From Linanthus parryae (taxonomy: Eukaryota; Streptophyta; Magnoliopsida; Ericales; Polemoniaceae), in assembly GCA_023055425.1 (NCBI GenBank), contig JALGPY010000002.1, positions 50,987,321 through 51,051,320 on the forward strand: a stretch of 64,000 nucleotides of DNA, in the 5' to 3' direction. Shown in pieces: positions 16,152 to 60,833 of this stretch. Under the pieces are notes generated by a model. It had not been told where the DNA came from. It searched no databases and saw nothing but the letters and a program-made list of their open reading frames with translations. The translations under genes and the position numbers were made by a program. The number at the start of each line of letters is the position of its first letter. Position 1 is the first letter of the stretch.

Positions 16152-19100
16152 GCGGCAGGATTTCCGAAGGTGGCAGAAGAAGATGCACTTCCTGTTGACG
16201 ACGCTGAAAGTTGTGTATGTTCTTACCACCCCGATGCCTGAAGCTGTGGAGAACGAAACCCTGGAACAGACAAGGAGGAGATCAAAGTGGGAGAATGATG
16301 ACTACATCTGCCGCGGACACATTCTTAACGGTATGTCTGATTCCTTGTTTGATGTTTATCAGAATGTTGAGAGTTCAAAAGAACTGTGGGATTCTCTTGA
16401 ATCAAAATACATGGCTGAAGATGCTTCAAGCAGAAAATTTCTGGTCAGTAATTGGAACAATTACAGAATGGTTGATTCAAGGCCTGTGATGGAGCAATAC
16501 CATGAATTGCTTCGTATCCTAGGGCAGTTTAATCAACACAACATGAAAATGGATGAATCAATTTCCATTTCTAGTGTGATTGATAAACTGCCTCCGTCAT
16601 GGAAGGATGTTAGGCATAAGTTGAAGTTTAAAAAAGAAGAACTTTCCTTGGTGCAATTGGGCAGTCACTTTCAGATTGAACAATCCTTGAGGGATCAAGA
16701 AAGTGACAAACCCAAGGACAAACTTACTGCTGATCCAGGTTCTGCGAATATGATGGAGGAAGGGGATTTTTCGAAGGGAAAGAACAAATCGGGAAAAAGG
16801 AAATTTAAACAGCAAGACAACAATCCTAACAAGAAGCCAAAGTTTGCATGTTGGAAGTGTGGGAAACCAGGGCACTTCAAGAAGGATTGTTGTGTGGGCA
16901 AAAGTAAGAAAGGTGAAGACACAAGTGGCAAGGGAAAGGGGCCGAAAGGCCAAGATCAGCAACAAGGTATGTTCATTGAACAACCTGAAAATTCAATTCA
17001 GAATTATGTATCCCTAAATTCTGATGCATTTTATGTGCAGGATGATGACATATCATGGTGGGTTGATTCGGGTGCTACAAGACATGTATGCAAGGATCAA
17101 AGATGGTTTACAACCATGCAAACCATTGAAGATGGATCCACAATAAGAATGGGGAATGTTGCAACCGAGCCAATCCATGGAGTTGGAAGTGTTAACCTAG
17201 TATTTACTTCTGGAAAATGTTTAAGTTTGTATGATGTATTGTTTGTACCCGGGATTCGAAAGAAGCTCTTGTCTGGAATTGTATTAAATAAGCTTGGATA
17301 CAAGCAGGTTATTGAGTCGGATAAGTTTGTATTGTCAAAACATGGTTCTTTTGTTGGCTTTGGTTATTTATGTAATGATATGCTTTGTTTAAATATCGTT
17401 GCTCCTTTTGGTAACAATTCAATTTGCGTTGCTAGTACTAGTATTGATAAATCAACACTTTGGCATGCACGTTTAGGACATGTACACTTTAAAAGGTTAC
17501 AAGATATGTCCAAAATGAGTCTAATTCCTTCATTTGATATTAATACCGAAAGGTGTAAAACTTGTATGCTGACCAAGATAACTAGACAACCTTTTAAGGA
17601 TGTTAAAAGGAACTCTAAGGTGCTTGAACTAATTCATAGTGATCTATGTGACTTTCATGCAACACCGTCTATAGGAAACAAAAAGTATGTTATTACTTTT
17701 ATAGACGATGCTACTCGGTTTTGCTATGTGTACTTGTCACACTCTAAAGATGAAGCTTTAGATAAATTCAAGACATACAAAACTGAAGTTGAGTTGCAAA
17801 AGAATGGTTTAATAAAGATTTTACGCACGGATAGAGGAGGCGAATATTATGATCCTAAGTATTTCCAAGAGGTTGGTATTATTCACCAAACCACTTCTCC
17901 TTATACACCTCAACAAAATGGTGTATATGAGAGGAAGAATCGAACTCTAAAGGAGATGGTTAATTCCATGCTTTCCTACTCGGGTTTGAGTGATGGATTT
18001 TGGGGAGAAGCTATGTTAACAGCTTGCTATTTGCTTAATAGGGTTCCTAACAAAAGGAACAAAATTACCCCATATGAACTTTGGTATGGTAAACCTCCAA
18101 ACTTGCATTATTTGAGAGTTTGGGGTTGTAGAGCTATTGTTAGGCTCAATGATCCCAAGAGAAAGAATCTTGGTGAAAGAGGTATAGATTGCATCTTCAT
18201 TGAATATGCCATGCATTCCAAGGCTTATAGGTTCTATGTGATTGAACCTAGTGACTCAGTATCCATTAATACTGTAATAGAGTCAAGAGATGCTATCTTT
18301 GATGAAGAAATGTTTTCTTCCATACCTAGACCAAAGGACTTGGTTCCGAATTTGAGCAATGCTCAAAATGAAGGAACAAGTGACGCCATCACTTTACCTG
18401 AAGTAAGAAAGAGTAAAAGAGGTAGAGTAGCCAAGGACTATGGTTCTGATTTTCAACTATATTTAGTTGAGGGATCTAGGGATGAGATTCATACTCAGTA
18501 TGCTTATTGTTTTAGCATAGAGGAGGATCCTATAACCTATAGTGAGGCTATGGCATCTCGTGATGTTGCATTCTGGAAAGAAGCAATAGATGATGAGATG
18601 GATTCGATCATGCAAAATGGGACTTGGGAATTATCTGATTTGCCCCCTGGGTTGAAACCACTTGATGCCAAGTGGATCTTCAAAAAGAAGATGAAAGTAG
18701 ATGGTACCGTAGAAAAGTTTAAGGCCCGACTGGTTGTACGTGGTTTTAAACAAAAAGAGGGTATCGACTACTTTGATACATATGCTCCTGTTGCTAGGAT
18801 ATCCACGATTAGATTATTAATAGCTCTTGCAGCTATACATAATCTTGTTATTCACCAAATGGATGTGAAAACCGCATTCTTGAATGGTGATTTGGATGAG
18901 GAGATATATATGAAACAACCCGAGGGATTTGTTATGCCAGGAAATGAGCATAAGGTGTGTAAGCTTGTTAAATCACTTTACGGTTTAAAGCAAGCTCCTA
19001 AACAATGGCATCAAAAATTTGATGATATTGTGTTGTCTAGTGGTTATCATTTGAACCAAGCAGACAAGTGTGTATGTAGCAAATTTGATGATTCTGGTAA

Positions 19101-20053
19101 AGGAGTCATAATTTGTTTATATGTAGATGACATGTTGATCTTTGGTACCAGCCAAGATCAAGTGGATCAAGCGAAGGAATTCTTGTCATCTAAATTTTCA
19201 ATGAAGGATTTGGTTGAGGCTGAAGTAATCCTAGGTATTAGGATTAAACGTGAGAACAAGGCCATTTCTATTTCTCAATCTCATTACATTGAGAAGGTGT
19301 TAAAGAAATTTAACTGTGAAAATTGTTCTCCGGTTAGTACTCCGATGGAACCAAATGTGAAATTGTTGCCTAACCAAGGCAAGGCTGTATCTCAACTGGA
19401 ATACTCTAGGGCTATTGGTTGTCTAATGTATGCCATGATTAGTACACGACCAGATATAGCATTTGCTGTTGGAAAGCTAAGTAGGTATACTAGCAATCCA
19501 AGCACACATCATTGGCAAGCAATGAGGAGAGTATTCAAGTATTTAAGGAAAACCATGAATTATGGTTTGACATACAGTGGAACTCCTTCGGTTCTAGAAG
19601 GATATTCTGATGCAAGTTGGATAAACAATATGGAAGATCATTCCTCAACTAGTGGATGGGTTTTTCTACTTGGAGGAGGGGCAATCTCATGGGCTTAAAA
19701 GAAGCAAACTTGCATTACTAAATCGAAAATGGAATCTGAATTTGTGGCATTAGCTGCAGCCGGTAATGAGGCTGAATGGCTAAGGAATTTAGTGTATGAG
19801 ATTCCATTGTGGGCCAAACCGATTTTCACCAATATCTATCAGGTGTGATAGTGCTGCTACTCTGGCTAAGGCATATAGTCAGGTGTATAATGGCAAGTCT
19901 AGACACTTGGGTGTCAGACATAGCATCATTCGGGACTTAATCATGAATGGTGTGATATCGGTTGAGTTTGTTCGTACACAACAAAATCTTGCGGATCATC
20001 TGACCAAAGGGTTAGCAAGGGACTTAGTGCACAAGTCGGCCGTGGGGATGGGA
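16126..20053 (+). pseudogene. C2 gag-pol polyprotein (gag, PR, IN, RT, RNase H), broken
   Basis: A single frame of 1190 codons runs from an ATG in the LTR remnant to a stop at 19696-19698. In order: gag (RRWQKKMHFLLTTLKVVYVL), CCHC knuckle CWKCGKPGHFKKDC (16849-16890), protease WWVDSGATRHVC (near 17060), integrase zinc site (LWHARLGHVHFKRLQ with CKTCML), catalytic stretches YVITFIDDATRF, LRTDRGGEY and PQQNGVYERKNRTL, then reverse transcriptase with YVDD at 19120-19131 and RNase H (GYSDASWINN). Two lesions hit RNase H: TAA in place of Ser in ISWA-stop-KKQ, and one extra T in the run at 19823-19826 that shifts the C-terminal CDSAATLAKA...VRTQQNLADHLTKG segment. The true gag start is lost; the first ~9 residues are LTR-derived. 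Copia for certain; clade not assigned. Confidence 0.93.
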
Positions 20054-40456: not shown

Positions 40457-43400
40457 TTATACCTGGTCGAAAAGGTGCGGATAACGCTTCTTCATGTCAG
40501 CCTCGGTTTCCCACGTTGCCTCCTCCGTGAGATGGTTCGACCAAAGAACCTTAACCAACACAGTGGACTTGGTACGGGTATCCCTAGTCTTTCGATCTAA
40601 GATTTTGATTGGTTGCTCCTCATAGGTTAGGGACGGGTCTAACTCAACAGGCTCGGGATCAAGAATATGGCTTGGATCATGAATATAAGGCTTGAGTTGG
40701 GATACATGGAAAACATTATGGACTCGACCTAGGTTGTTAGGAAGATTAAGGCGATAGGCTACCTCTCCGATCCGATCCAACACTTCATATGGTCCAATGA
40801 ATTTGGGACTCAACTTCCCCTTCTGGTTGAAACGCATAACACCCTTTGTAGGAGAGACCCTTAGGAACACTTTGTCACCAACCTTGAACTCCAATGGTCT
40901 TCTCTTCAAATCTGCGTAAGATTTCTGTCGATCCTGATCTGCCTTCATCCTTTGTTGAATCATCCGAATCTGGTTCGTCGACTCCTCAATCAATTGTGGT
41001 CCCAGAATCACCGTCTCGCTGATGTCGCTCCAACATAATGGCGTCCTTCACTTCCTTCCATACAATGCCTCATAAGGTGCCATCCCTATGCTGCTATGGT
41101 AGCTATTGTTGTAGGAGAACTCAATCAGTGGAAGCTTGTCCACCCATGATCCTCCAAAGTCCAATATGCAAGCTCTTAGCATGTCCTCCAGTGTTTGGAT
41201 TGTCCTTTCGGTTTGCCCATCTGTAGCTGGATGAAATGCTGTGCTAAACCTTAATTCCGTCCCCATAGCTTTCTGTAGTTCCTTCCAAAAATGAGACAAG
41301 AAATTTGGGTCTCGATCAGACACAATCGAACTAGACACTCCATGTAACCTCACTACATTCTTGATGTATGCATCGGCCCTCTTTTCCATATCCCACATGT
41401 CCTTCATGGGAATGAATCTAGCTGTCTTCGTCAGTCGATCGACTATTACCCAAATCTGATTGAGTCCATTAGTTGAAACTGGCAAAGCCGTAACGAAGTC
41501 CATTGAGATGGAATCCCATTTCCATACTGGAACTTCTAACGGTTGCAACATTCCTCCTGGTCTTTTGTGCTCGAACTTAACCTTCTGACATGTCAAACAT
41601 CGAGATACAAAATCTGCAACTTCCTTCTTCATACCCTTCCACCAAAAGTTCTTCTTCAGATCCTTATACAGCTTGTCTCCTCCTGGGTGTACAGAATACG
41701 GCGTATTATGAGCTTCCTTCATGATCTTCTCCTTCACTTCCGCACATTTAATCGGAATACACCATCTTCCTTTGAACTTTACACTGTCGCCTTCCTCGAC
41801 CTTGAAATCGAGTGCTTCGCCCTTCTTGATCTTTTCCTTGATATGTTGCAGAAACGCGTCCCCCTTCTGTCCTTCCTTAATCTCAGCAAAGATATCCGGA
41901 ACTATCGACAAATTGCATAACATGCTACTTGTCATCCCTTTCACACAAACCTCAATCTCCAATTTCTGAAAATCTTCATAAAGTTTACGCGGCAAAACCC
42001 ATAAGGAATTCACCGTGTGATTTGTCTTTCGACTCAAAGCATCCGCCACTACATTGGCTTTCCCTTCGTGGTATTGGATTTGCAAATCATGATCCTTTAC
42101 CAATTCTAACCACCTTCGTTGACGCATATTCAGCTCCTTCTGGGTGAATATGTACTTCAAACTCTTGTGATCCGTGAAGATCTTGCAAGTCGTTCCGTAC
42201 AGGTAGTGTCTCCATATCTTCAAGGCAAACACTATAGCAGCTAACTCTAAATCATGGGTAGGATAGTTCTCTTCGTAGGACTTTAGCTGCCTCGAAGCAT
42301 ACGCTATCACTTTCCCACCTTGCATCAAAACGCATCCTAAGTCGTGCTTCGACGCATCACTATAAACTTCAAACTCTCCTCCTTCAGTAGGTAATGTCAG
42401 TACAGGTGCTGACGTCAACCTATCCTTTAACGTTTGAAAAGCTTCTTCACACTTTTCATCCCATACATACTTACTCGACTTCTTCATTAAGGCTGTCATA
42501 GGTCTCGCAATCTTCGAGAAATCCTTTACAAACCTCCGATAGTATCCTGCCAATCCCAAGAAACTTCTTATCTCAGTCACACTCTTTGGTGTTGGCCAGT
42601 CCTTCACTGCCGCTACCTTCCCCGGGTCCACTGACACTCCTTCCTTGGATATTATGTGTCCTAAGAAAGGCACTCTATCCAACCAAAACTCACACTTCGA
42701 TAACTTCCCATACAATTTCTCTTCCCTTAGAGTTTCCAACACTTCTTTCAAGTGTTGTTTTGTGCTCCTCCTTTCCTTTAGAGTAGATTAGAATGTCGTC
42801 GATGAACACGACAACAAACTTATCAAGAAACTTCTGCAACACACGGTTCATCAACTCCATGAACGCTGAAGGTGCATTTGTCAAACGAAATGGCATCACT
42901 GTAAACTCGTAATGACCATATCGAGTTCGAAATGCTGTCTTAGGGATATCCTTCTCGGCTATCCTAAGTTGGTGGTACCCTGACCTCAAATCAATCTTTG
43001 AGAACGTATCGGCTCCTTGTAGTTGATCAAACAAGTCGTCGATCCTGGGAAGTGGGTACTTGTTCTTGACGGTCACACCATTTAACTCACGGTAGTCTAT
43101 GCAAAGCCTTAGACTTCCGTCCTTCTTCTTCACGAACAAAACTGGTGCTCCCCAAGGTGAGACACTAGGTTTAATGTAAGCCTTATCTAATAGGTCCTTA
43201 AGTTGCTCCTTCAACTCCTTCAACTCAGCTGGTGCCATCCTGTATGGAGCCTTAGAAATAGGTCCAGTCCCAGGCACTAAGTCGATTTGGAAATCTACTG
43301 CTCTCTTTGGTGGCATCCCAGGAAGTTCCTCCGGAAACACATCTGGAAAGTCTCTCACTACTGAAATATCTTCCAATTTATCTCCTTCTTTCTCATGATT

Positions 43401-45264
43401 GTGGATCGTACAGAGGTATGCCTTATGCCCTTTCTTAACTTCCGAAAGAATGGTTAAGGCCGACACGATTTGGATGCTGGGTCCACTGGTTATACCCCTA
43501 TAGGATAGACGCTCACCTTTTGGTCCACGAAACCTAACTTTTTGGCTGGCACATTCTATGGTCGCCTTATACTTGCTAAGCCAATCCATACCCAAGATAA
43601 CATCTAAACTCCCCAAATCGAAAAGGATAAGGTCTGATGGAAGTTCAACACCGAGGATTTCTAGTTTGACTCCAGGGTACACGGTTTTACACGATGTGAC
43701 TTCTCCATTAGGGGCAGAGATAGAAACTGATATAGGTGTGGGATTAGGTAAATCTAGTTTCTTAGCAAAAGAAGATGAAATGAAAGAAAAAAGTGGCTCC
43801 AGAATCAAATAAGACATATGCAGGGGTAGAGTGGATAAGGAATGTACCAGTCACTACGTTGGCCTGCTCCGCTTGTGTCTGGTTCATCACGTTGATAGTC
43901 CCTGCCTTGCTGTTGGTTGTGGCTGCTGGTGCGGTAGTTCCTGCTGCTGCTGTTGATGTGGATCCAACGTTACTTCCTTGGGGTCGGTTATTGTAACCAT
44001 TCCTTCCTTGCCAATTGTTTCCCTTGTTGTAGCCACCTCCATTGTTGTTCCTGTTGCCAGCATTGTTGTTGTTCCTGCCCTGATTGTAACCTCCATTGCT
44101 TCCGTTGCGGTAACCTCCACCATGCTGGTAATTCTGCTGATTCCCGCCATACTGGTTACCACCGTTGTAGTAGTTACCTCCACGATTAGGTCCATTGTTT
44201 CCCCCTGAGCGGTTCATACCACTTCCATTGTTCCCACCTCCATAGAAGTTACCCTGGTTGTTAGAGTTGCTGCCACTATTGTTATCTCGAGGCCTTGAAC
44301 GACATTCAAATCGGCGATGGCCCAACTTACCATAATTGATGCAAGTCACCTTCATACCATGGCAGTCCACCCCAGGGTGGTTTCCGCCGCATCTCTTGCA
44401 GTAGTATGACCTTATCCGACCTTGTCCACCTTGGGCTTGACTTCCAAACTGGTTGGTGGGGGCAGGGTTGGGACGAAACTTCTTATCTCCGCTGTTGTTT
44501 CCAGTACCGCGGTTTTGGAATCCGGTTGCAGCTGGCACCTCAGTCTTCCTTTTCCTGTTGGCTTCGGTATTAGTATCCAGCATGCGCTGCATGTCGTGAG
44601 CCGCTCCATAAGCCTCCATGAGTGAGTTAAATTTTGTGGGTCCCATTGCCCTTCGGACTTCGAAGTCCAGACCTTCGACAAATTTGCGGATCCTACGCAC
44701 TTCTGTGGGTACAATTTCCCGTCCGAACCTCATGAGTTCCATAAATTTCTCATAGTAAGCAGTTAAGGTAGCTCCATCTTGCTTCAGGTGCAAAAACTCC
44801 TCAAACTTCTTCGACTTCACATGGTAGGGGTCAAACCGTTCACGCATAGCCTCCTTTAGCTGCTCCCATCCAAAGCCTTCCTGGGCGAGTAACTCGGCTG
44901 AGACGGAAGTCCACCAGTTATCAGCTTATTTCTTAAAGTAATAGACCGCCACTTCTATGCGTCGGTCCTCGGGGCAACGCACCGAAATCAGTGCTTTGTG
45001 GAAGTCGCGAATCCAATTCTCTAGGGTGGTCGGGTCGTCCGTCCCATAAAAGAAATCAGGGCGGAGTTCTGCAAGCTTACTCATCACGTCACCTCCCCCC
45101 GCCTGTTGGCTGTGCAGGAGTTGGGTTAGGGCTAGGGTCGCTTGTTCCATGTTCAGGAACCGAATTGGGTCATATTGTTCTGGAAATGGAGCCGGTTGGT
45201 TTCCTTGGGTTCCCTGACTCATCGTTCCTACTTCTCTTGCACGTCTCCTGGTATAATATTGCAT
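40457..45264 (-). pseudogene. G1 gag-pol polyprotein with chromodomain (four lesions)
   Basis: The start is placed at ATG 45264 (MQYYTRRRAREVG), matching the QYYTRR start of G2. Order: gag, zinc knuckle CINYGKLGHRRFEC (second Cys replaced by Tyr), Gly/Asn-rich linker, protease LFDSGAT, reverse transcriptase [10 protein letters not shown], RNase [13 protein letters not shown], integrase HHCC and DDE ([27 protein letters not shown]), GPY (SPKFIGPYEV), and chromodomain (VKVLWSNHLTEEATWE) near the C-terminus at 40457. Lesions: TAA at 44926-44928 in gag; one extra T (run 43787-43792) right after DSGAT; a +1 shift at about 42752-42765 after FIDDIL; TGA at 41048-41050 after EALYGRK. Four breaks make it inactive. 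The domain set and order are those of Tekay/Del chromoviruses. Confidence 0.93.
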
Positions 45265-45498: not shown

Positions 45499-46236
45499 TC
45501 ATATCCGGGAGTCGTACTCATCGTCTGTAACACACTCGGGACCAGTTCCACCTAAGGTCACAGGATAAGTTTGAGGCGTGTAAGTTGGTTCATCATCTCT
45601 CAACATATCAGGTTGATCATCACCCATAACCAAGTGTGCAAGCGATGGCTCAACGAGTTCGACCTCATGCTCTTCATACATTCCATCGTCTTCCTGCTCA
45701 TCCTCCATGTCCTCATCTTCGTCTTGCTCCTCTTCTGGGTCTTCTTCAGGCTCGTATTCTTCCTCCGGGTCCTCTTCTGGGTCCTCTTCAATTTCGTCGG
45801 CTTGGTGCTCGGCGTCCTGTGCTACCTCCCGGTGCATTGGTGGATGTAGCAATTCTTCCATTTGGCTCCAAAGTTCTAAGTGGTTCATCCAATAATGATC
45901 ATAATCGCGATGCTTGTACTTGGTGACATTAGGCACCATTTGACCCCATATATTCCTAACAAACAAGTCATCGTATCTTCCCTTGAGGCTCGTCCATAAA
46001 GGCTCATCTGGTAGACCGTTGAGGATGTAACAACATATCTTCAGCGGGTGGGCGTGGATTTCTTTTCCATGTGGGCTTTGGCTCCAAGCACGACACAGGT
46101 TACGTACATAAGTACAATACTCTCCTATCGTCTCCTGTCCCGCAAGGTATGTGACATAGCGCGGCGCGTGAGCAGGTGTGAGGTCTGCAGGGGCTGGGAT
46201 GGGTGGTCTAACTGCGGAATCAGGTAGGGCAGCCAT
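45499..46236 (-). CDS. ORF0 of G1: extra protein upstream of gag, acidic C-terminus
   Basis: An intact 245-codon ORF lying between the primer site and gag, on the same strand. Start chosen at ATG 46236 (MAALPDSAVRPPIPAPADLT) because a strong acceptor-like CTTTTCTTCTTTCAG sits immediately before it; the frame opens 17 codons earlier through that pyrimidine tract. No known domain is recognised. Residues 25-130 form a Cys/Trp/Tyr-rich, probably folded region (YC at 40-41, LPDEPL at 75-80, GRY at 86-88, HRDY at 109-112). Residues 147-195 are almost all Glu/Asp/Pro. The folded part aligns by eye with ORF0 of G2, with the same YC position and the same LP-to-(R/K)Y spacing of 12. It has no histone-like N-terminus, signal peptide or membrane segment, so it is not an env gene. 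It is intact although gag-pol next door has four lesions. Function unknown. Confidence 0.8.
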   Translation of the reverse strand: MAALPDSAVRPPIPAPADLTPAHAPRYVTYLAGQETIGEYCTYVRNLCRAWSQSPHGKEIHAHPLKICCYILNGLPDEPLWTSLKGRYDDLFVRNIWGQMVPNVTKYKHRDYDHYWMNHLELWSQMEELLHPPMHREVAQDAEHQADEIEEDPEEDPEEEYEPEEDPEEEQDEDEDMEDEQEDDGMYEEHEVELVEPSLAHLVMGDDQPDMLRDDEPTYTPQTYPVTLGGTGPECVTDDEYDSRI

Positions 46237-46624
46237 CTGAAAGAAGAAAAGAAGAAGTCTCAGAAATGTTCTAAACCCACACATCACTTAATATCTCAAC
46301 GGAATTTAATTTTAAACAATCTAAAGAACTAAACAGTAATTTCCACAAATTTTAATTAACCAAAACAGTAGTATCCACATGACGAGACATGAAGTAATAC
46401 ACATATGCCACATAGTAAACATCTATAATCAATGAAGCATTCTCAAGTAATCATGAAAGACAACAAAATATTACAAAACTACCCCCAACCCCGGCTTGTT
46501 CCATTTTATTATTACCATTTTTGGTTATCCTATGTGAATTTTAAATTTCTTTCAAAAATGATTTTAATATTTGATTTATCTTTATTAAAGGAAAATGGAG
46601 AATCGCACTAGCTTAGAACCGTCC

Positions 46625-47902: not shown

Positions 47903-49216
47903 GTAGAAATAAACTTTAAACAAATTAACTGTATTCTTAAAATCTATTTATAACAAGTTATCTAGAAAAGAGTATAATATCTAGAAAGATGATAATAGTA
48001 TTAAAGAAAAGTTAACTTTACTTATTAAAAGAGTAAATATCTAATTGTAAACAATATATATTTTACAAAGAGAAATCTTGAAATGAATCCATAGTATAAA
48101 GTTATCTAGATAATAAGAAACAAATTGTTATTTAGCACAACTATTTATTTTTATTAGTAAAACTCTACTTATAAAATTATACTATACAAACTTATATTTA
48201 TTTTTATATTAAAAGAAACTATTTCAATGAGATTTCATATTAATAAACAAAATCATTATAAATATATACATATATATATATATACATATATAGAACTTAT
48301 ATATAAATAATAACCTAAAAGAAAACAATTTACATTTACAATTAATATCTTAACCTTCCCAAAGTTTCTGAATCATACAAACCACCCCCAACAGATTTTG
48401 CCAAAGTACACATTAACCCCCAATTTCAAATATCTCCTTCAATTACACTCTCTTCTCCAAATCAACTCACTGCAGCTCCACAATCACACAAACCCAAACA
48501 ACTATTGATCCATATGGAGATAACTGGGTAATTGGAAGCATTCGAATTGAATTAGAAATCAAAAGAGGCTGATGTGGTTACCGATTGAAGAAAAGCAGAG
48601 TGAAGAAAACGACGGCGGCGACTAGGGTGATGTCGCTGCTGCTGCTGCTAGCGGTGGTCGCCGGAATTGAGGACGACGGTGACGAGAGGGAGAAGGGACG
48701 ACGGACGGAGCAGAGGAGACGCTGGCGGCGTCGGGTTTGCGTCGGGCTTGCGTCGGCTTCTCTCGGGTCGGAACCGGGTCGGCGATGAAACAGAGCCGAT
48801 GGTGGCTCTGTTCTTCCTGCTGGTTCGCCGGACGTTGAGATGGAAGGGAGGCGAGTTGGTGGGGGTGGTTTTCGCCGGAATTTTGCAGAGATGGTGGTGG
48901 TGTTGGCGGTGATTCTGAAACAGAGGAGGCAGTGGTTTGTTGCTTCGTCGAAAACAGAGTGTGGTGAGATGGAGGGCGACGAGGAGAAGAGGGGTGTTGA
49001 TATATGTTGACTGGAGATTGAAATAGAGGGGAACGTGGGTGAAATCGTGGGAGGAATCGGGGGAATTGTTGAGGAGAAATCGGAGATGAACAGATGCTTT
49101 GTTCCGATCGTTTCGATCGGTAGAGACGCTACAGGGGTCAGTTGGGTTTACACCCAACTTTGGGAAAAGACACTTTAACCCCCTCTAACTAAGTTTCTAT
49201 AATTACAAATACCAAC
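46639..49216 (-). repeat. G1 5' LTR, main part (interrupted by G2)
   Basis: Matches the 3' LTR from its GGGATGTTTCA end (46639 on plus) up to CCAAC at 49216, where G2 begins; the last 84 bp are at 60745-60828. It includes the predicted intron, the motif at 47262-47280 and the shorter TAA tract (47837-47902). The G2 insertion lies in the promoter-proximal start of this LTR. Confidence 0.95.
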
Positions 49217-49506
49217 TGTAACACCCCCAAATGGCCCAAGCCGGAGACCCGGGGATGTCACTCCGTACCCGAGAGGAGCCCGGATACAAGGAGATTTTAT
49301 AACATGGTTCACAAGCACACACATCCACAATAATAAATTAAATCCAATTAAAATAATGTATTATCATAAACCTTCGTCCTAGCCACAAACCGGCAAAAAC
49401 AACTAAAGCGTTTAAACTACTAAGAGTTCAAATTGAAATGTAATACTACTATTAATAATCCATGTGGTGCGCGCCCCCTTCTATGCCCGATAACCTTCTT
49501 CCAAAC

Positions 49507-50154
49507 CTGTGGTGCGGAATGAAAAAGAAACACCACAGTACAAAATCAGCATTGAAATACTGGTAAGCAAACATCCAAACATGTAAAACGATGATGGATA
49601 GTTATAAAACAAGACTCATTTGTAAGTAAGAGTTTTTCGCAAACACAGCGGTAATAAAGTGACTCTTGTTTCAAAACATAAGAGTTCCCAATTCCATAAC
49701 ATATTTCCAAACCAATTTCTATATTATTAGGAAAAATCCAAATCCAGTGTTAACTTCGTTCCGTTAACAAAACCAAACAAATCCATTATTACTTTGTTGT
49801 GACGGGGAAAACCAAATACTACAGCGTGCATGACCTTAAGTGTCGACACCCCCCAAAGACTACGCCGGTCAGAGGAGTGAGTACATGTTATTGTCCGGGG
49901 ACTTGCAACCGGATTAAAAAGAGACGGGACCGCAGCCAACACCGCCCAAAGAATAATAACGTCCCGCACAACATCTTCCACTTTACGTATTAGTTCATTC
50001 ATTATCATGGTGATGTTTTCGTCAAAAACATTTAGCAAGTAGAAATCACATATTCCAAGTCATGTATCATGTAAACACATTTTGAGACGTAATAAATCAA
50101 ATATTCGTTTGACACGAAAGAGATAAGCACACTAGGCTTGGCACATTTACTTAC
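49507..50154 (-). other. Predicted intron in the G2 LTR (3' copy)
   Basis: Minus strand: donor TTTGAG/GTAAGTAAATG (a near-perfect plant consensus), pyrimidine tract GTTTCTTTTTCATTCC, acceptor CACCACAG/GTTTGG, 648 nt. The 5' LTR copy is 58742-59389. This is the best-scoring pair of splice sites by eye among the five LTRs. Confidence 0.55.
49834..49852 (-). promoter_or_regulatory. Conserved palindromic motif in the LTR intron (G2 3' copy)
   Basis: The minus strand reads GGGGTGTCGACACTTAAGG, identical to G1 although the surrounding LTR is strongly diverged. The 5' LTR copy is at 59069-59087. Confidence 0.42.
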
Positions 50155-51504
50155 CTCAAAGCAAATTCCAACAATAGCAATCAATCAACGTACTCTACGT
50201 ACTCGTCGTCGACGAACTCGTTACCTACACATAACAATATGCTAATCAAACCAATATTCTAGCAATATATACTTGCTATACTAGTTACATGCATATGATA
50301 GTCCATGGTTTAGGGTTCTAACACTTCCCCAATATCCCATTCAATTCATGCTCCAAAATAAGCTTAAAGCTTTGCCTCAAAAACCCTTATCCTAAAATAT
50401 GCATAATCCATCATAACTCCACCAATTCTATTACTCCAGTTTCCCAAACAGATCATGGTCTAGAAACAGTTCCATTGGATTCAAAACATTCGAAATAATA
50501 AGTTTAGCCTCAAACGGATCTTAATTTCGATTCCTGAATCAAAAGTTACACTAGTTTCAAGTTTCCAACTTCATTCAAAATATCCATACGGGAATTGTCA
50601 ATCTTCATTAAACTTTTCCCCCAAGCATCTAATTCATCCTATAATCATACTAAACCTAATATAACATGATTCCCACATTCAAATCAGATTGTTATCCACC
50701 TAATATGATCATTCAAACTCCCAAATCATTCAATCAAACTTCCCTTTCAAACTAGGGTTTCTTCCCAACACTCAAGAACATGATAAACCCTAAAACTTGA
50801 TAATAAACCCTACGAATTCATGAACAATGATCCTAACCCTAACAAACTGAAATTTAAAGATTACGTGCAACATACATGAATCATGAACAAGTGATCACAA
50901 GATCAAGAGATCAACAAAATAAAAGAGAAAAAGAAACGAAACAACCCAACCCGCTCAACCCGCCGCCCATAGAGGCGGACGGAGAGAGAGGCGGACGGGT
51001 ATAGGGAGAAAGAAAGAGAGAAAAGAGAAAAGAGAAAAAGAAAAGAGAAAAAGAGAGAGAGAGTGAGAGAGTTACCTTGCCGGAAAAGAGAGAGAGAGCG
51101 GCGGCGGCGGTGGGGTGGCTGCCGTCGGTCACAAGGGAGAGAGAGAGTGAGAGAGGGACGGGTAGAGTAGGGAGACGTGAGAGAGATTAGGAAAAATAGG
51201 AGAATGAGGGTTTTTATGAGAGTTAGAATTAAAATTAACTTCATAAGTAGGAAACCCTCTTGGATTAGGAAACTTTTATTGTAGGAAGAAATTTAGGTCA
51301 AAAGACACTTATTTCCCCTTAGTTTTGCCAAAAGACAAACACCTCCCCCCAACTCAAGTAAAAGACACTAAAACCTTTGATTAAAGTCACAAAGTTCCCC
51401 CCAAACTCTCAAAGCACTATAATTAACTCTCTATAATTACTTTAACTTCCCAACACTTATAATAATATCACAAAATACCCGTAGTCACAAAACGGGGTAT
51501 TTCA

Positions 51505-51753: not shown

Positions 51754-54700
51754 TCAAGGTACCTCGTCAAACAAGTGAGGGTACTTCTTCCTCATATCAT
51801 CTTCCGCTTCCCAAGTTGCCTCTTCCGTGAGGTGGTTAGTCCATAAGACCTTTACAATCTTGACACTCTTATTACGGGTGTCCCTTGTCTTGGTGTCTAA
51901 AATCTTGACAGGTTGTTCTTCATAACTCAAAGACGGGTCCAGTTCTACTGGTTCGGGATCTAATACGTGAGATGCATCAGGCATATACTTCTTCAGTTGC
52001 GATACGTGAAATACGTTATGAACACGACCTAAATTCGACGGTAAATCCAATCGATAAGCCACTTCTCCAATCTTTTCTATAACATCATATGGTCATATGA
52101 ATTTCGGGCTCAACTTCCCTTTCTGATTGAACCTCATGACTCCCTTAGTCGGTGATACTTTAAGAAATGCTTTTTCTCCAACTTGAAATTCCAACGGTCT
52201 TCTCTTCTGATCCGCGTAAGATTTCTGTCTATCCTGCGCTGCCTTCATTCGCTGCTGTATAAGTCTCACTTGATCTGTCATCTCTTCAATAAGTTGTGGA
52301 CCAATTACTATCGTCTCACTTATGTCGTTCCAACACAACGGTGTTCTACACTTCCTTCCATACAACGCTTCATGTGGTGCCATTCCAATACTGGCATGAT
52401 AACTGTTGTTGTAGGAGAATTCTATCAAAGGTAATCTATCAACCCATGAACCTTGAAAATCCATAACACACGATCTTAGCATATCTTCCAACGTTTGTAT
52501 TGTTCTTTCGGTTTGTCCATCTGTAGCCGGGTGAAATGCCGTGCTAAACTTCAACTGAGTTCCTAGTGCTTCCTGAAGTGCTTTCCAGAAGTGAGAAAGA
52601 AAATTGGGATCTCTGTCGGAAACTATAGAGCTTGGTACTCCATGATACCTTACAATGTTCTTCATATACGCATCAGCTCTTTGTTCCATATTCCATGTGT
52701 CTTTCATCGGAATAAACCTTGCTGTTTTGGTCAATCTGTCAACTACGACCCAGATCTGATTCAGTCCATTCTTTGATGTTGGTAACGCAGTCACGAAATC
52801 CATCGAAATAGAATCCCACTTCCAAACTGGGACATCTAATGGTTGTACTAAGCCTCCCATTCTTTTATGTTCAAACTTTACCTTTTGACAAGTTAGACAT
52901 TTTGCCACAAATTCTGCCACTTCTTTCTTCATGTTAGGCCACCAAAACATCTTTTTCATGTCCTTATAGAGTTTGTCACCTCCTGGATGTACTGAGTAGG
53001 GTGTGTTGTGCGCCTCACGCATCAACTTTTCCTTAATTTCCGTACACTTATGTGGTACACACCATCTTCCTTTGTAACGGATACTTCCATCTTCATGGAT
53101 TTTGAAATCTTTTGCTTGTCCTTCTGCAATCTTCTTCTTTATCCTTTCCAGTTTCACATCTCCTGGCTGGTTACTCCTTATTTCTTCTAAGACATCTGGC
53201 ACAACTGTCATATTCCCAAGAATATTCTTTACTTCTCCTTGTTTCACTACTTCAACTCCAAGTTTTCGGAACTCTCGGCATAGCCGATCTGGTAAAACTA
53301 GCATAGTATCCAAAGTATGGCTCGACTTTCGGCTTAATGCATCAGCTACTACGTTTGCCTTCCCTTCATGGTATTGAATACGCAAATCATAATCCTTTAT
53401 GACTTCTAACCAACGTCTTTGCCTGTTGTTTAGCTCTTTCTGCGTGAAAATGTATTTGAGACTGCTATGATCCGTATACAATCTACACACAGATCCGTAC
53501 AAGTGATGTCTCCATATCTTCAATGCAAATACTATAGCTGCAAGCTCTAAGTCATGCGTAGCATAGTTCTCTTCATGAGTTTTCAGCTGTCTTGAAGCAT
53601 AAGCAATAACTCTTCTATCTTGCATAAGCACGCATCCTAAACCCTTCTTCGATGCATCACTATAAACATCAAACTCGCCAGAATCATTGGGTAAAGCTAA
53701 GACAGGTGCCGTCGTTAACTTTTCCTTCAGTGTCTGGAATGCTTCTTCACAATCTTCGCTCCACTTATACCTTACCGTCTTCTTGGTTAGTGTAGTAAGC
53801 GGTCTAGCGATCTTCGAGAAATCTTTCACGAAACGCCTGTAATATCCTGCTAGTCCGAGAAAACTTCTTACTTCGGACACATTCTTCGGAGTAGGCCAAT
53901 CTTTCACTGCTGATATCTTTCCTGGATCCACGGATATTCCTTCCTTGGAAATTATGTGACCCAAAAATGGAACGTGTTTTAGCCAAAATTCACACTTCGA
54001 GAGTTTAGCATATAACTTCTCATGTCTCAAAGTTTCTAACACTTCTTTGAGGTGTTCTTCGTGTTCTTCCTCGCTCTTTGAATAAACAAGGATGTCATCA
54101 ATAAAGACGACCACGAAACGATCTAGAAACGTTCTCATAACACGATTCATTAGATCCATAAATACTGCTGGAGCATTGGTCAGACCAAAAGGCATAACGG
54201 TGAACTCGTAGTGTCCATACCTCGTTCTAAAGGCTGTCTTCGGTATGTCCTTCTCGGCTACTCGAAGCTGGTGATAACCTGATCTCAAGTCTATCTTTGA
54301 GAAAACACTCGCCCCTTGTAACTGATCAAACAAGTCGTCAATTCGGGGTAAAGGGTACTTGTTCTTGATTGTTGCGCTATTCAACTCCCTATAGTCAATG
54401 CACAATCTCAAGCTTCCGTCTTTCTTCTTCACAAACAACACCGGTGCACCCCACGGGGAAACACTCGGCCTTATATACCCCGTTTGAAGTAACTCTTGCA
54501 ACTGATCCTTTAGTTCTTTCAACTCTACTGGCGCCATTCTGTACGGTGCCTTTGAAATTGGAGCTGTTCCAGGTGCTAAATCCATAGTGAATTCGATCTC
54601 TCTTCTAGGTGGCATTCCTGGAATTTCGTCCGGAAACACATCGGGAAAATCTCTAACGATTGGTATTTCTTCTAGCACATTCTCCTTCTTAGATGTGTCT

Positions 54701-56427
54701 TGAATATAGCACAAATAAGCACTATTCCCTTTCTTCACTTGGTTGACTATGGTCAAGGCTGACACTAGTCGGATACATGGTTCTTTTGTGATACCACGAT
54801 AAGAAACTTTTTCTCCTTTTGGACCTTTAAGCCTTATCTTCTGATCGTGGCAGTCTATTACTGCACGATATTTTCCCAGCCAATCCATTCCCAATATAAC
54901 ATCTATCCCTCCAAGATCAAACTGTATCAGGTTCGCTGGTAGGGTACTAGCCGAAATCTTAACTTCTACTCCTTCAAAAATGGCGTCACATACTGTTACA
55001 TGACCGGTTGGGGTAGCTACGGGGATGGATATTCTAGACGGCTTATTGAGACTCAATTTTTCCACAAACGATGACAAGATAAACGAATACGAAGCTCCGG
55101 AATCAAATAAAGTAAAAGCTGGTTGATCATGAACGAGAAATGTACCAGTGACTACTCCGTTTGCTGCTTCCGCTTCAGTCCTGCTCATGACAGCGATCCT
55201 TGCGATATTCCCATTCTGTGCGGTAGTTCCTGTCGTACCAGTCCCATTGTTGTTGGCGTTAGTTGGAGTGTTGTTGTTCCTATTCCCGTTCTGAACTCCA
55301 TTGTTCCTTCCATTGCCTTGGTTGTTCACTTGTTGTCTACCATACTTGTTGCCTCCATTATTGTTGTTGTAGTTCCCATAGTTCCGATTTCCGCCCTGAT
55401 TGTTGTTGTTGAACTGTCGGGTTCCTTGGTAATTGCCTCCTTGGTTCCCTAGTTGGTTTCCATTTGGTTTTACTCGACACTCAAACGAACGATGACCTTT
55501 CTTGCCACAATGGTAGCAAGTGACAAGGTTTCCTTGACAGTCCTTTCCTGGATGATTCTGTTGGCACTTCTTGCAGATATAACGGCGAGATTGCTCATCT
55601 CCATTATTCTGCTTGTTACCACGATACTGTCCTTGGTTACTTCCTCCGTGGTTAGGCTTAAACCTTTTGTCCTGACTACCTTGGTTAGTCCTACCCTGAT
55701 TGTTTCCATAGCCCACGGCGTTCTCAACTTTGCGTTTCCCACGCTTCTCGTCTTGTGCCTCTTGAATACGCCAAACGGCTGCAGCCCTATCATAAGCTTC
55801 CTGTAGCGTATCGTACGTCCTACACATCAAGTCTTTCTGCAGATGAAGTTCGAGACCAGACATGAACTTCCTGACTTTAGTCGCTTCATCAGGCATCAAC
55901 TGACCTGCGAATCGGGATAATTCCATGAATTTCTTGAAGTACTCGGTCACGGAACCGTTTCCTTGTGTTAGATTCACGAAGTCTAAGTACTTTTGATCCT
56001 GGACATGGTCCGGATAAAAGCGAGTGCGAAGTGCGGTTTGAAGAGCCTCCCAATTGAAATTGGGTTGCGCCAAAAAGTTCTGACGCGTACTCCTCCACCA
56101 TGTATTAGCTTCGTTCTTCAAGTAAAATGCCGCGCAAACCACTTTGCGGTCTTCGGGACACTCAACTAGCTCAAGGATCTTATCCATCTCATCGATCCAA
56201 TTCTCGAGCTCAACAGGGTCCTCATTGCCTATGAAGTTCCCTGGCTTCATATCTGCCACTTTCTTTGCCCAGTTTGCGTTATTCTGCTCTCCCTGGTTTG
56301 CGTTCTGCGCCATCTGAGCAAACTGTACGAAGAACTGCTCCATATTGTTGTTGTTGTTGTTGTTGGGTGCGGCCATTGGTACTTGGCGATTTCTCCTGGT
56401 GTAGTATTGATGTGGTCTATCAGTCAT
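51754..56427 (-). pseudogene. G2 gag-pol polyprotein with chromodomain (one premature stop)
   Basis: One frame of 1558 codons broken only by TGA at 52093-52095 (codon 1445). Start placed at ATG 56427 ([16 protein letters not shown]); the open frame begins 28 codons earlier, in what looks like leader. Domains by residue: gag; CCHC knuckle C304-C307-H312-C317; Asn/Gly-rich linker to about 410; protease DSGA 442-445; reverse transcriptase with FIDD 775-778; RNase H (D924, E961, D986); integrase HHCC (H1140, H1147, C1177, C1180) and DDE (D1210, D1271, E1307). The stop replaces the Gly of the GPY module (SPKFI-stop-PY). The GPY remainder and a chromodomain (VKVLWTNHLTEEATWE) follow in frame to 51754. 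The encoded product would have all catalytic domains but lack the chromatin-reading tail. Single-copy sequencing error cannot be excluded as the cause. Confidence 0.95.
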
Positions 56428-57448: not shown

Positions 57449-58078
57449 TTAATCGTCGTCCTCATCGCTTTCGTCCATCTCTTCCTCTTCGTCGGAATCA
57501 TACTCGTGCTCTTCATCTTCACTAGGGTCTTCTTCACTTTCTTCATATTCCATGGGATCTTCTTCAATCTCGGGGTATTCATCGACGTCTTCCATTGGAT
57601 CTTCTTCAACTTCTTCATCATCACTAGAATCTATAATAATCACTTCTTTCTCATCACTAGAGCTTATGTAGATCACGTCTTCTTCATCACTGGACTTTAT
57701 CTCAATAACTGTATAACTTTGCCACTTAAGGTAAGTCTCCATCAACAACTTGCATATGAAATCTGCACTTACCGTCCATTCACCTTGGCAACGATAATCC
57801 CTATCATTCAAACGATTCATCCTGCCCATGATGTTGCTATATTTTGTAATAATATCCCCAAACATCGGTTTCATAGGTAATGCCTTCACCATACAGTAAG
57901 CCTGAAAAGCTGGATTTCTATATCGAGGGAATTCTAAGGCTCGGAATCTATCTTCACAATATTGAACCACGCGGTCACGAAAATCTGGAAAATCTTCACC
58001 TTCGACCCAACGTGTCACAACAGGGTGCTTCTCTACTGGCAACACACGCTTCCTTGCTGTATGCTTAGTTCTAGCCAT
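57449..58078 (-). CDS. ORF0 of G2: extra protein with histone H3-like N-terminus, SIM-like repeats and acidic tail
   Basis: An intact 209-codon ORF between primer site and gag. Start ATG 58078 follows an acceptor-like TTTCCTCTTGTAG. Residues 1-10, MARTKHTARK, copy the H3 tail (ARTKQTARK) at 8 of 9 positions after Met, keeping R2, K4, R8 and K9; Met before Ala is normally removed, which would expose the same N-terminus as in H3. Similarity to H3 ends there. Residues 28-118 are a probable folded domain shared with G1 ORF0 (YC 40-41, LP 67-68, KY 79-80, DRDY 92-95). Residues 124-156 are three 11-mers, VIEIKSSDEED, VIYISSSDEKE and VIIIDSSDDEE, each a hydrophobic core followed by Ser and acidic residues, the form of phospho-regulated SUMO-interacting motifs. 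Residues 157-209 are nearly all Glu/Asp/Ser. No enzyme motif, signal peptide or membrane segment. The fold and function are unknown; a chromatin or SUMO-pathway role is inference. Confidence 0.82.
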   Translation of the reverse strand: MARTKHTARKRVLPVEKHPVVTRWVEGEDFPDFRDRVVQYCEDRFRALEFPRYRNPAFQAYCMVKALPMKPMFGDIITKYSNIMGRMNRLNDRDYRCQGEWTVSADFICKLLMETYLKWQSYTVIEIKSSDEEDVIYISSSDEKEVIIIDSSDDEEVEEDPMEDVDEYPEIEEDPMEYEESEEDPSEDEEHEYDSDEEEEMDESDEDDD

Positions 58079-58436
58079 CTACAAGAGGAAACAACTTAAT
58101 AAATCTCTAATTTAAATGGTATAAACTGTAATCCAAATAACTACTCTTCGCAGACCAATAATTATTCCCAAGACTCCAAATCGATGGTTCCAATACTTTT
58201 GAAGAAATCTCCCAACGAAGTCTCTTAAAATAGGCCTAACTTAGAATCCAATTGGGATACTCCAAAAATTCGAATGGGTGGATGGGCACTTGTTTTCTAT
58301 CCTATTTTCTAAACACTTATACATAACAATCCTATCCATACTACCCAAATTCCCACGGCTTGTCGAATTTTAAGTTATTTTCTCCTATATTCATTTTAGT
58401 TGCCCTAACAAGTTTCAAATTTCTTCTTAGAATGCC

Positions 58437-58449
58437 GGCTCTGATACCA
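58437..58449 (-). other. G2 primer-binding site (initiator tRNA-Met)
   Basis: The minus strand reads TGGTATCAGAGCC two bases after the 5' LTR end, complementary to the 3' end of plant initiator tRNA-Met. Confidence 0.93.
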
Positions 58450-58451: not shown

Positions 58452-60739
58452 TGTAACACCCCCAAATGGCCCAAGCCGGAGACCCGGGGATGTCACTCCG
58501 TACCCGAGAGGAGCCCGGATACAAGGAGATTTTATAACATGGTTCACAAGCACACACATCCACAATAATAAATTAAATCCAATTAAAATAATGTATTATC
58601 ATAAACCTTCGTCCTAGCCACAAACCGGCAAAAACAACTAAAGCGTTTAAACTACTAAGAGTTCAAATTGAAATGTAATACTACTATTAATAATCCATGT
58701 GGTGCGCGCCCCCTTCTATGCCCGATAACCTTCTTCCAAACCTGTGGTGCGGAATGAAAAAGAAACACCACAGTACAAAATCAGCATTGAAATACTGGTA
58801 AGCAAACATCCAAACATGTAAAACGATGATGGATAGTTATAAAACAAGACTCATTTGTAAGTAAGAGTTTTTCGCAAACACAGCGGTAATAAAGTGACTC
58901 TTGTTTCAAAACATAAGAGTTCCCAATTCCATAACATATTTCCAAACCAATTTCCATATTATTAGGAAAAATCCAAATCCAGTGTTAACTTCGTTCCGTT
59001 AACAAAACCAAACAAATCCATTATTACTTTGTTGTGACGGGGAAAACCAAATACTACAGCGTGCATGACCTTAAGTGTCGACACCCCCCAAAGACTACGC
59101 CGGTCAGAGGAGTGAGTACATGTTATTGTCCGGGGACTTGCAACCGGATTAAAAAGAGACGGGACCGCAGCCAACACCGCCCAAAGAATAATAACGTCCC
59201 GCACAACATCTTCCACTTTACGTATTAGTTCATTCATTATCATGGTGATGTTTTCGTCAAAAACATTTAGCAAGTAGAAATCACATATTCCAAGTCATGT
59301 ATCATGTAAACACATTTTGAGACGTAATAAATCAAATATTCGTTTGACACGAAAGAGATAAGCACACTAGGCTTGGCACATTTACTTACCTCAAAGCAAA
59401 TTCCAACAATAGCAATCAATCAACGTACTCTACGTACTCGTCGTCGACGAACTCGTTACCTACACATAACAATATGCTAATCAAACCAATATTCTAGCAA
59501 TATATACTTGCTATACTAGTTACATGCATATGATAGTCCATGGTTTAGGGTTCTAACACTTCCCCAATATCCCATTCAATTCATGCTCCAAAATAAGCTT
59601 AAAGCTTTGCCTCAAAAACCCTTATCCTAAAATATGCATAATCCATCATAACTCCACCAATTCTATTACTCCAGTTTCCCAAACAGATCATGGTCTAGAA
59701 ACAGTTCCATTGGATTCAAAACATTCGAAATAATAAGTTTAGCCTCAAACGGATCTTAATTTCGATTCCTGAATCAAAAGTTACACTAGTTTCAAGTTTC
59801 CAACTTCATTCAAAATATCCATACGGGAATTGTCAATCTTCATGAAACTTTTCCCCCAAGCATCTAATTCATCCTATAATCATACTAAACCTAATATAAC
59901 ATGATTCCCACATTCAAATCAGATTGTTATCCACCTAATATGATCATTCAAACTCCCAAATCATTCAATCAAACTTCCCTTTCAAACTAGGGTTTCTTCC
60001 CAACACTCAAGAACATGATAAACCCTAAAACTTGATAATAAACCCTACGAATTCATGAACAATGATCCTAACCCTAACAAACTGAAATTTAAAGATTACA
60101 TGCAACATACATGAATCATGAACAAGTGATCACAAGATCAAGAGATCAACAAAAGAAAAGAGAAAAAGAAACGAAACAACCCAACCCGCTCAACCCGCCG
60201 CCCATAGAGGCGGACGGAGAGAGAGGCGGACGGGTATAGGGAGAAAGAAAGAGAGAAAAGAGAAAAGAGAGAAAGAAAAGAGAAAAAGAGAGAGAGAGTG
60301 ATAGAGTTACCTTGCCGGAAAAGAGAGAGAGAGCGGCGGCGGCGGTGGGGTGGCTGCCGTCGGTCACAAGGGAGAGAGAGAGTGAGAGAGGGACGGGTAG
60401 AGTAGGGAGACGTGAGAGAGATTAGGAAAAATAGGAGAATGAGGGTTTTTATGAGAGTTAGAATTAAAATTAACTTCATAAGTAGGAAACCCTCTTGGAT
60501 TAGGAAACTTTTAATGTAGGAAGAAATTTAGGTCAAAAGACACTTATTTCCCCTTAGTTTTGCCAAAAGACAAACACCTCCCCCCAACTCAAGTAAAAGA
60601 CACTAAAACCTTTGATTAAAGTCACAAAGTTCCCCCCAAACTCTCAAAGCACTATAATTAACTCTCTATAATTACTTTAACTTCCCAACACTTATAATAA
60701 TATCACAAAATACCCGTAGTCACAAAACGGGGTATTTCA
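58452..60739 (-). repeat. G2 5' LTR (2288 bp)
   Basis: Same length as the 3' LTR at a constant offset of 9235 bp, with about seven substitutions seen (for example C/T near 58952, G/T near 59843, A/G near 60098). On the minus strand a TATA-like CATAAAAACC precedes the CT-rich leader block near 60450. Confidence 0.95.
58742..59389 (-). other. Predicted intron in the G2 5' LTR
   Basis: Same donor (GAG/GTAAGTAA) and acceptor (CACCACAG/GTTT) as the 3' copy. Because this is the 5' LTR, the intron would lie in the transcribed leader upstream of the primer site if transcription starts in the CT-rich block. Confidence 0.52.
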
Positions 60740-60744
60740 CCAAC

Positions 60745-60828
60745 CCCCCAGATTAGGAAAGAATAATTGTAGCCCCAAACTCAAGATTAATATACCAAAA
60801 TACCCTATTTAAAAATAGGGGTGTTACA
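60745..60828 (-). repeat. G1 5' LTR, outer 84 bp
   Basis: Continues the G1 LTR after the G2 insertion and ends GGGGTGTTACA, followed by the GAAAC duplication at 60829-60833. Confidence 0.93.
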
Positions 60829-60833
60829 GAAAC

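What the first reader, a model, noticed from the sequence alone, without database searches (positions are those of the whole stretch)
58049..58078. Retrotransposon protein that begins with a histone H3 tail mimic
ORF0 of chromovirus G2 starts M-ARTKHTARK; histone H3 starts M-ARTKQTARK. Eight of nine residues match, including K4, K9, R2 and R8, at the exact N-terminus where H3 readers and writers act. Met-Ala would be processed as in H3. The match ends after K9, so this is not a captured histone gene. Established: chromodomains of some chromoviruses bind H3 methylated at K9, and a viral protein with an H3-like tail is known (influenza NS1). Inference: the ORF0 tail could be methylated by H3K9 or K4 enzymes, compete for their readers, or be bound by the element's own chromodomain. 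I know of no description of this, but could not search.
Basis: partly seen in the sequence, partly recalled or inferred. Interest (0 to 1): 0.9.

Follow-up and report, generated by a model that had tools for sequence, protein, structure and literature searches.

The report
Retrotransposon protein wearing a histone tail
A plant jumping gene carries an extra protein that starts with nine residues almost identical to the tail of histone H3, differing only at a position where several plant centromere histones carry the same residue; 358 sites in the genome encode this start, and it would likely let the element engage the host's chromatin-reading or silencing machinery, which is untested.

Summary
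ORF0 (window 57449-58078, minus strand) begins M-ARTKHTARK, 8 of 9 residues of the H3 tail; chance gives about 7e-8 for the 102 ORFs examined. It is the sense 5' additional ORF (5'aORF) of a young Tekay-type chromovirus: 2288-bp LTRs with seven differences, 5-bp TSD. The genome has 358 sites encoding the same ten residues, reversed pattern 0. In 49 copies the rest of ORF0 has pN/pS about 0.28, so the protein is under selection. New here: the odd residue, His5, stands in plant CENH3 too (poplar, sunflower, Chionographis start ARTKH), so the model may be the end common to H3 and CENH3. The ATG abuts a conserved 3' splice-site-like sequence, also seen in a second element of the window that lacks the tail. 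The element's chromodomain lacks two of three cage aromatics, so self-binding is unlikely. Most likely a host-directed histone-tail mimic; function, the host's own CENH3 and unbiased tail conservation stayed untested because the genome search stopped answering.

The parts
58049..58078 (-). Start codon plus H3/CENH3-like tail ARTKHTARK (codons 1-10 of ORF0)
   Evidence: Read directly; chance estimate; 358 identical encodings in genome, reversed control 0
57449..58078 (-). ORF0, 209-aa 5' additional ORF (5'aORF)
   Evidence: open to at least 195 aa in 32 of 49 tail-selected copies; pN/pS 0.28 over codons 11-209; no Pfam family at a meaningful score
57629..57715 (-). Three tandem SUMO-interaction-like motifs, codons 122-150
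   Evidence: Sequence reading; three matches to a loose pattern of mine in 28 of 32 full-length copies (the other four, L001, L010, L042 and L046, have changed length); the SIM consensus is recalled, function untested
57452..57622 (-). Acidic C-terminal tail, codons 153-209
   Evidence: Sequence
58079..58098 (-). 3' splice-site-like sequence TAAGTTGTTTCCTCTTGTAG directly before the ATG
   Evidence: 0.50 changes per site over the 24 nt before the ATG against 2.42 for the 36 nt before that, 47 copies; same arrangement in the second element; splicing itself not shown
59384..59392 (-). Candidate 5' splice site GAG|GTAAGT in the 5' LTR
   Evidence: Best donor-like site of LTR plus leader (donor frequencies recalled); identical in 17 of 20 other copies, but 195 of 2126 LTR 9-mers do as well
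58438..58449 (-). Primer binding site TGGTATCAGAGC
   Evidence: Read directly; match to initiator tRNA-Met recalled; beet chromoviruses have a Met-tRNA site near the LTR (passage)
58452..60739 (-). 5' LTR
49217..51504 (-). 3' LTR
   Evidence: seven differences to the 5' LTR over 2288 bp
49212..49216 (.). Target-site duplication CCAAC, left
60740..60744 (.). Target-site duplication CCAAC, right
52093..56427 (-). gag-pol ORF (gag, zinc knuckle, protease, RT, RNase H, integrase), 1444 aa, ends before the chromodomain
51754..52092 (-). Chromodomain stretch, same frame, after the stop at 52093-52095
   Evidence: read as a separate piece; named by likeness to the second element's ORF 40457-40963, which hits Pfam Chromo (E 2e-06); lacks the first and third cage aromatics by eye

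Best explanation
ORF0 is the 5' additional protein of a Tekay-type chromovirus, and its first ten residues are likely a working mimic of the N-terminal tail shared by histone H3 and plant CENH3, which would dock host proteins that read or modify that tail. Shown: the match, its place at the exact N-terminus of a sense 5'aORF, its encoding at 358 genomic sites, selection on the rest of the protein, and strong conservation of the splice-like sequence that ends at the ATG. Inferred: a leader intron joins an LTR exon to this ATG so that ORF0 is translated first; Met is removed as in H3, exposing the alanine; the tail is bound or methylated at K4/K9 by host enzymes or readers; the acidic C-terminal part with its SUMO-motif-like repeats recruits or holds further silencing factors. 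I commit to competition with host silencing (a decoy that titrates H3-tail writers or readers away from the element's chromatin) over integration targeting.
For: 8 of 9 identity at the free N-terminus, chance about 7e-8 for the window. 358 identical encodings, reversed control 0. Silent changes do occur in the tail: 12 of the 100 listed copies by my count, and 1.22 changes per third position on a tree against 1.43-2.00 elsewhere in ORF0 (47 copies), so the site is not simply too young to vary. ORF0 codons 11-209: pN/pS 0.28; codons 11-29, next to the tail, 0.12 (49 copies); second positions 0.62 changes per site against 1.77 at four-fold sites. ORF0 open in 32 of 49 copies. The 24 nt before the ATG change about five times less than the 36 nt before them. 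Several plant CENH3s start ARTKH, and the N-terminal end of plant CENH3 tails is described as strictly constrained, with a block shared with H3 (PMC4314295, passages). The 49 listed copies on the 194.5-Mb contig C1 are evenly spread (KS p 0.83), which does not favour centromere targeting.
Against: All copies analysed were found by the tail, so absence of amino-acid change there is imposed, not observed. Counted by copies, silent diversity in codons 2-10 is lower than in the rest (pS 0.035 against 0.114), which a nucleotide-level signal could cause. No binding, modification, expression or localisation data. A second chromovirus in the window has a 5'aORF without such a tail, so the tail is not general to these proteins. 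The ORF0 fold could not be predicted (mean pLDDT 44). A short basic N-terminus could serve nuclear import. The decoy step has no direct evidence.
Confidence: 0.4

Rival explanations
1. The tail is a chance or convergent basic N-terminus, kept for nuclear import, start-codon context or splicing signals at the nucleotide level, with no histone-like role.
For: Conservation begins before the ATG and runs into the first codons, as a splice site with an exonic signal would give; codons 2-6 have only 2 changes at 5 third positions; pS in codons 2-10 is 0.035 against 0.114 in codons 11-209. Sunflower Tekay 5'aORF has an unrelated nuclear localisation signal (PMC11728184, passages).
Against: Nucleotide signals do not explain an 8 of 9 amino-acid match to H3; codons 7-10 have 9 changes at 4 third positions, so the later tail does vary silently.
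Confidence: 0.3
2. The tail mimics CENH3 rather than H3, and lets ORF0 bind the partner of the conserved CENH3 N-terminal block, for centromere chromatin or its loading factors.
For: His5 and ARKR recall plant CENH3 (poplar MARTKHPVARKRARS; sunflower ARTKHPAKRS).
Against: The T6-A7-R8-K9 spacing is that of H3; the 49 listed copies are evenly spread on C1 (the centromere of C1 was not located); the host CENH3 could not be read. A solved structure named Histone H3 (7d69) also starts MARTKHTARK, so His5 is not unique to CENH3.
Confidence: 0.15
3. The tail was captured from a host H3 or CENH3 gene together with a leader-intron acceptor, and its role, if any, is secondary.
For: The ATG abuts a 3' splice-site-like sequence; plant H3.3 genes are recalled to have a leader intron ending near the ATG.
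Against: The second element has the same arrangement before an unrelated N-terminus, so the acceptor need not come with the tail; no H3 similarity after K9. Host genes could not be compared.
Confidence: 0.1
4. The ORF0 tail is a ligand of the element's own chromodomain and links ORF0 to integrase.
For: Both are encoded by one element; H3K9me is the ligand of canonical chromodomains (PMC3350952, passages).
Against: The chromodomain reads as group II: no aromatic at the first cage position and His at the third, only the Trp kept (by eye); the interacting factor of plant group II domains was not found in the work cited there.
Confidence: 0.05

Closest known systems
5' additional ORFs (5'aORFs) of Tekay chromoviruses, e.g. 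sunflower Tekay 13-2, and those of rice, maize and sorghum named in PMC11728184
   Same: Sense ORF between 5' LTR and gag, conserved in its family, no similarity to gag or pol, biased composition
   Different: The sunflower protein is 402 aa, proline-rich, with an unrelated nuclear localisation signal; the word 'histone' does not occur in that paper's main text
Histone H3 / plant CENH3 N-terminal tail
   Same: ARTK-x-TARK at the free N-terminus; His5 as in several plant CENH3s
   Different: No histone fold and no similarity after K9
Viral histone-tail mimics such as influenza NS1 (recalled)
   Same: Short H3-like peptide in a protein of a parasite
   Different: NS1 carries a short match at its C-terminus (recalled); here nine residues at the exact N-terminus of a retrotransposon protein
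VANC anti-silencing proteins of Arabidopsis VANDAL transposons (PMC10398659, listing and start of abstract only)
   Same: Transposon accessory protein that counters silencing
   Different: VANC is described as sequence-specific; that it binds DNA is recalled; no histone-like tail is named in what I saw

Membership tests
Tekay (Del) clade chromovirus | LTRs with 5-bp TSD and Met-tRNA primer site near the 5' LTR | tested here: met
   (these features are shared with the other chromovirus clades)
Tekay (Del) clade chromovirus | gag to integrase in one frame, then a group II chromodomain upstream of the 3' LTR | tested here: met
   in this copy a stop separates pol from the chromodomain; group II judged by eye, a type also found in Reina and Galadriel
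Tekay (Del) clade chromovirus | Placement in the clade by RT phylogeny | not tested
   No reference set at hand; the clade name rests on structure, size and recalled motifs
5'aORF of plant Ty3/gypsy elements | Sense ORF between primer site and gag, unrelated to gag and pol | tested here: met
5'aORF of plant Ty3/gypsy elements | Conserved coding capacity in the family | tested here: met
   32 of 49 tail-selected copies open to 195 aa or more; pN/pS 0.28
Histone H3 / CENH3 | Histone fold | tested here: not met
   No histone family in Pfam at E<=10
Histone-tail mimic | Tail-like sequence at a terminus where readers act, beyond chance | tested here: met
Histone-tail mimic | Tail kept at amino-acid level by selection | tested here: inconclusive
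   Only tail-selected copies available; the search without the tail did not complete in 24 requests
Histone-tail mimic | Bound or modified by histone readers or enzymes | not testable with these tools
   Needs peptide or cell assays

The most novel reading that the evidence does not exclude
A plant retrotransposon encodes a dedicated histone-tail mimic: an N-terminally exposed peptide common to H3 and CENH3 on an acidic protein with SUMO-motif-like repeats, made from a spliced leader, which is modified by the host's H3K4/K9 enzymes and draws silencing or centromere factors away from the element. To my knowledge it would be the first histone mimic in a transposable element.
Probability: 0.35. 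Interest if true: 0.92.

Novelty: new variant of a known kind. Interest (0 to 1): 0.7.

Why it matters
The function of the 5'aORFs of plant chromoviruses is unknown. A histone-tail peptide at the start of one gives a concrete, cheaply tested hypothesis, and would extend histone mimicry from viruses to transposons. It also warns that antibodies against CENH3 N-terminal peptides (those of poplar, Chionographis and sunflower were raised against peptides starting ARTKH with or without Met) might cross-react with such proteins where they exist.

Tried and rejected
Homologues: the search for homologous proteins with the whole ORF0 (1289 candidates, none at E<=1) and with residues 1-125 (2 candidates, none at E<=10); viral contigs by protein (91 pattern matches, none confirmed) and by tail pattern with His or Gln at position 5 (0). 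These collections probably hold few plants, so this says little. Pfam: nothing at a meaningful score for ORF0 (best CDC45, E 0.78) or for the second element's 5'aORF. BLASTP between the two 5'aORFs of the window: no similarity (E 0.77); a likeness seen by eye was not confirmed. Solved structures with the first 20 residues: one weak hit, histone H3 7d69, E 3.2. Structure: AlphaFold on the single sequence, mean pLDDT 44, not used. Centromere targeting: even spread on C1, not favoured. A first impression that the tail is ultra-conserved also at silent sites (pS) was weakened, not removed, by counting changes on a tree. That the 20 nt before the ATG are the single most conserved part of the leader is not so: the window -240 to -221 is as conserved in 21 sequences (0.005 against 0.007 substitutions per site). 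A 60-kb look near known copies for tail-independent copies found none. The candidate donor in the LTR is only in the top tenth of LTR 9-mers. Literature: ten searches were answered (one search was rejected for its wording); no listed title or abstract start named a transposon protein with an H3-like tail, but only the first 4-20 papers of each were listed and the library holds open-licence papers only; a survey of aORFs by Steinbauerova et al. (recalled) is not held under the DOI I recalled.

Full report
What is there. Window 57449-58078 (minus) holds a 209-codon ORF starting M-ARTKHTARKRVLPVEKHP. Eight of the first nine residues after Met equal the H3 tail ARTKQTARK (recalled). Among 102 ATG-started ORFs of at least 50 aa in the window the next best has 3 of 9, and the composition-based chance of 8 or more is 6.9e-10 per ORF; among all 11556 nine-mers of these ORFs only this one exceeds 4 of 9. 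The likeness stops at K9 and no histone family is hit in Pfam at E<=10.

The element. ORF0 lies between the 5' LTR and gag of a Ty3/gypsy element on the minus strand: LTRs 58452-60739 and 49217-51504, 2288 bp each with seven differences, TSD CCAAC on both sides, primer site TGGTATCAGAGC, gag-pol 52093-56427, then after a stop at 52093-52095 a chromodomain stretch in the same frame (named by likeness to the second element's ORF that hits Pfam Chromo). The total is 11523 bp; Bongo3, a Tekay element of beet, is 11565 bp with LTRs of 2561 bp (PMC3605345, passages). By eye the chromodomain has no aromatic at the first cage position and His at the third, as described for group II chromodomains of Tekay, Reina and Galadriel elements (PMC3350952 and PMC3605345, passages). 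With substitution rates recalled for plants the seven LTR differences mean roughly 0.1-0.2 million years. The clade name rests on structure; no RT tree was made.

The family. A degenerate-codon search of the 1.51-Gb genome found 358 sites encoding M-ARTKHTARK (189 + 169), none for the reversed pattern. Of the 100 places listed, 12 carry one synonymous change by my count. I fetched 48 of these copies and, with the window, analysed 49: 32 keep ORF0 open to at least 195 aa. Over codons 11-209 pN/pS is 0.28, over codons 11-29 0.12 (the 49 include L021 and L036, which are cut short by other sequence). In the same count silent diversity is lower in codons 2-10 (pS 0.035) than in codons 11-209 (0.114). 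On a tree built from codons 31-209 without the two short copies (47 copies), the 36 nt from -60 to -25 have 2.42 changes per site, the 24 nt before the ATG 0.50, the first 30 coding nt 0.37 (amino-acid change there is excluded by the selection), the rest of ORF0 0.67-1.59. Third positions of codons 2-10 have 1.22 changes per site, against 1.43-2.00 elsewhere; four-fold sites 1.25 (4 sites) against 1.77 (52 sites). So silent change in the tail is somewhat low but present: 2 changes at 5 sites in codons 2-6, 9 at 4 sites in codons 7-10. The critical test, amino-acid change in the tail in copies found without it, was not possible: all 24 requests did not complete.

Not H3 alone. The one mismatch to H3 is His at position 5. 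Plant CENH3s read MARTKHPVARKRARSPKRSD (poplar, PMC11288735), ARTKHPAKRSSGIPADGRSS (sunflower, PMC4628103) and MARTKHFSSNRTSRS (Chionographis, PMC10264360). A maize paper prints MARTKHQAVRKTAEK in a sentence that, as worded, calls it the H3 tail; by recall it is the maize CENH3 tail (PMC4814585, passage). A survey of 67 plant CENH3 tails found Blocks 1 and 2 in nearly all of them and in canonical H3, and says that both ends of the tail are under strict constraint (PMC4314295, passages); the letters of Block 1 were not in what I saw, and that it is the ARTK end is my reading. ORF0 thus has the CENH3 residue at 5 and the H3 spacing TARK at 6-9. Against over-reading this: a solved structure named Histone H3 (7d69; Giardia by recall) also starts MARTKHTARK. 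The host's own CENH3 could not be read.

How it may be expressed. The ATG follows TAAGTTGTTTCCTCTTGTAG directly, a good plant 3' splice site by eye. In 21 sequences these 20 nt are among the two most conserved 20-nt windows of the leader (0.007 substitutions per site; -240 to -221 has 0.005). The other chromovirus of the window has CTTCTTCTTTTCTTCTTTCAG before its own 5'aORF ATG at 46236, whose protein starts MAALPDS and shows no BLASTP likeness to ORF0 (run on the longer frame that starts upstream). So the splice-like start is shared while the histone-like tail is not. The best donor-like site, GAG|GTAAGT at 59384-59392, is present in 9 of 9 sequences with enough upstream DNA and identical in 17 of 20 copies, but 195 of 2126 LTR 9-mers do as well, and the transcription start is unknown. 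In the 3 kb before the second element's ATG the best donor-like site lies about 1350 nt upstream, a similar distance. A leader intron of about 1.3 kb is therefore likely, not shown. Three ATGs in the unspliced leader would be removed by it.

The rest of ORF0. After a part predicted helical in a low-confidence model come three tandem motifs of SUMO-interaction type (recalled consensus) and an acidic tail. Three matches to a loose pattern of mine were found in 28 of 32 full-length copies; the other four have changed length.

Mechanism. The 49 listed copies on contig C1 are spread evenly (KS p 0.83; the centromere was not located), so a centromere-targeting role is not favoured. The own chromodomain is a poor candidate for binding the tail. 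A separate accessory protein with an exposed H3-like end is best explained as a competitor for host factors that read or modify the ARTK end of histones, in favour of the element's expression. This last step is inference.

Known or new. 5'aORFs in Tekay are known; in sunflower 500 of 523 group 2 elements have one, with predicted nuclear location and unknown function (PMC11728184, abstract and passages). Histone mimicry is known from viruses (recalled). I found no report of a transposon protein with an H3-like N-terminus in ten answered searches of open-licence papers. Of these I saw the listings; passages were read in ten papers: PMC11728184, PMC4814585, PMC11288735, PMC10264360, PMC4628103, PMC6317226, PMC7264820, PMC4314295, PMC3350952 and PMC3605345. 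No paper was read whole.

Noticed in passing
window 45499-46236 (-): A second chromovirus in the window (pol pieces 40457-44847) has its own acidic 5'aORF, MAALPDS..., with a 3' splice-site-like sequence directly before the ATG but no histone-like tail.
   Followed up: partly
window 58079-58098 and 46237-46257 (-): Two 5'aORFs without BLASTP likeness share the arrangement polypyrimidine-(T/C)AG|ATGGC, which suggests that leader splicing onto the 5'aORF start may be a general feature of these elements.
   Followed up: partly
window about 58300-58319 (-), -240 to -221 from the ORF0 ATG: A 20-nt stretch of the leader, AAGTGTTTAGAAAATAGGAT, is as conserved as the splice-like sequence (0.005 substitutions per site in 21 sequences), reason unknown.
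   Followed up: no
window 57629-57715 (-): Three tandem SUMO-interaction-like motifs in ORF0, each followed by Ser/Asp/Glu runs.
   Followed up: partly
window 52093-52095 (-): This copy's pol frame has a stop just before the chromodomain, which continues in the same frame.
   Followed up: partly
window around 49200 and 60745-60830: The element seems to be inserted in another LTR-like sequence (right flank runs to ...GGGGTGTTACA).
   Followed up: no
window 5769-7396 (-) and 16183-19698 (+): Further retroelement ORFs; the one at 16183-19698 reads by eye like a large Ty1/copia polyprotein.
   Followed up: no
G000:C34:2327444-2346706: Three tail copies spaced about 9.6 kb apart, as in a tandem array of elements sharing LTRs; similar pairs about 9.2 kb apart on C1 and C2.
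   Followed up: no
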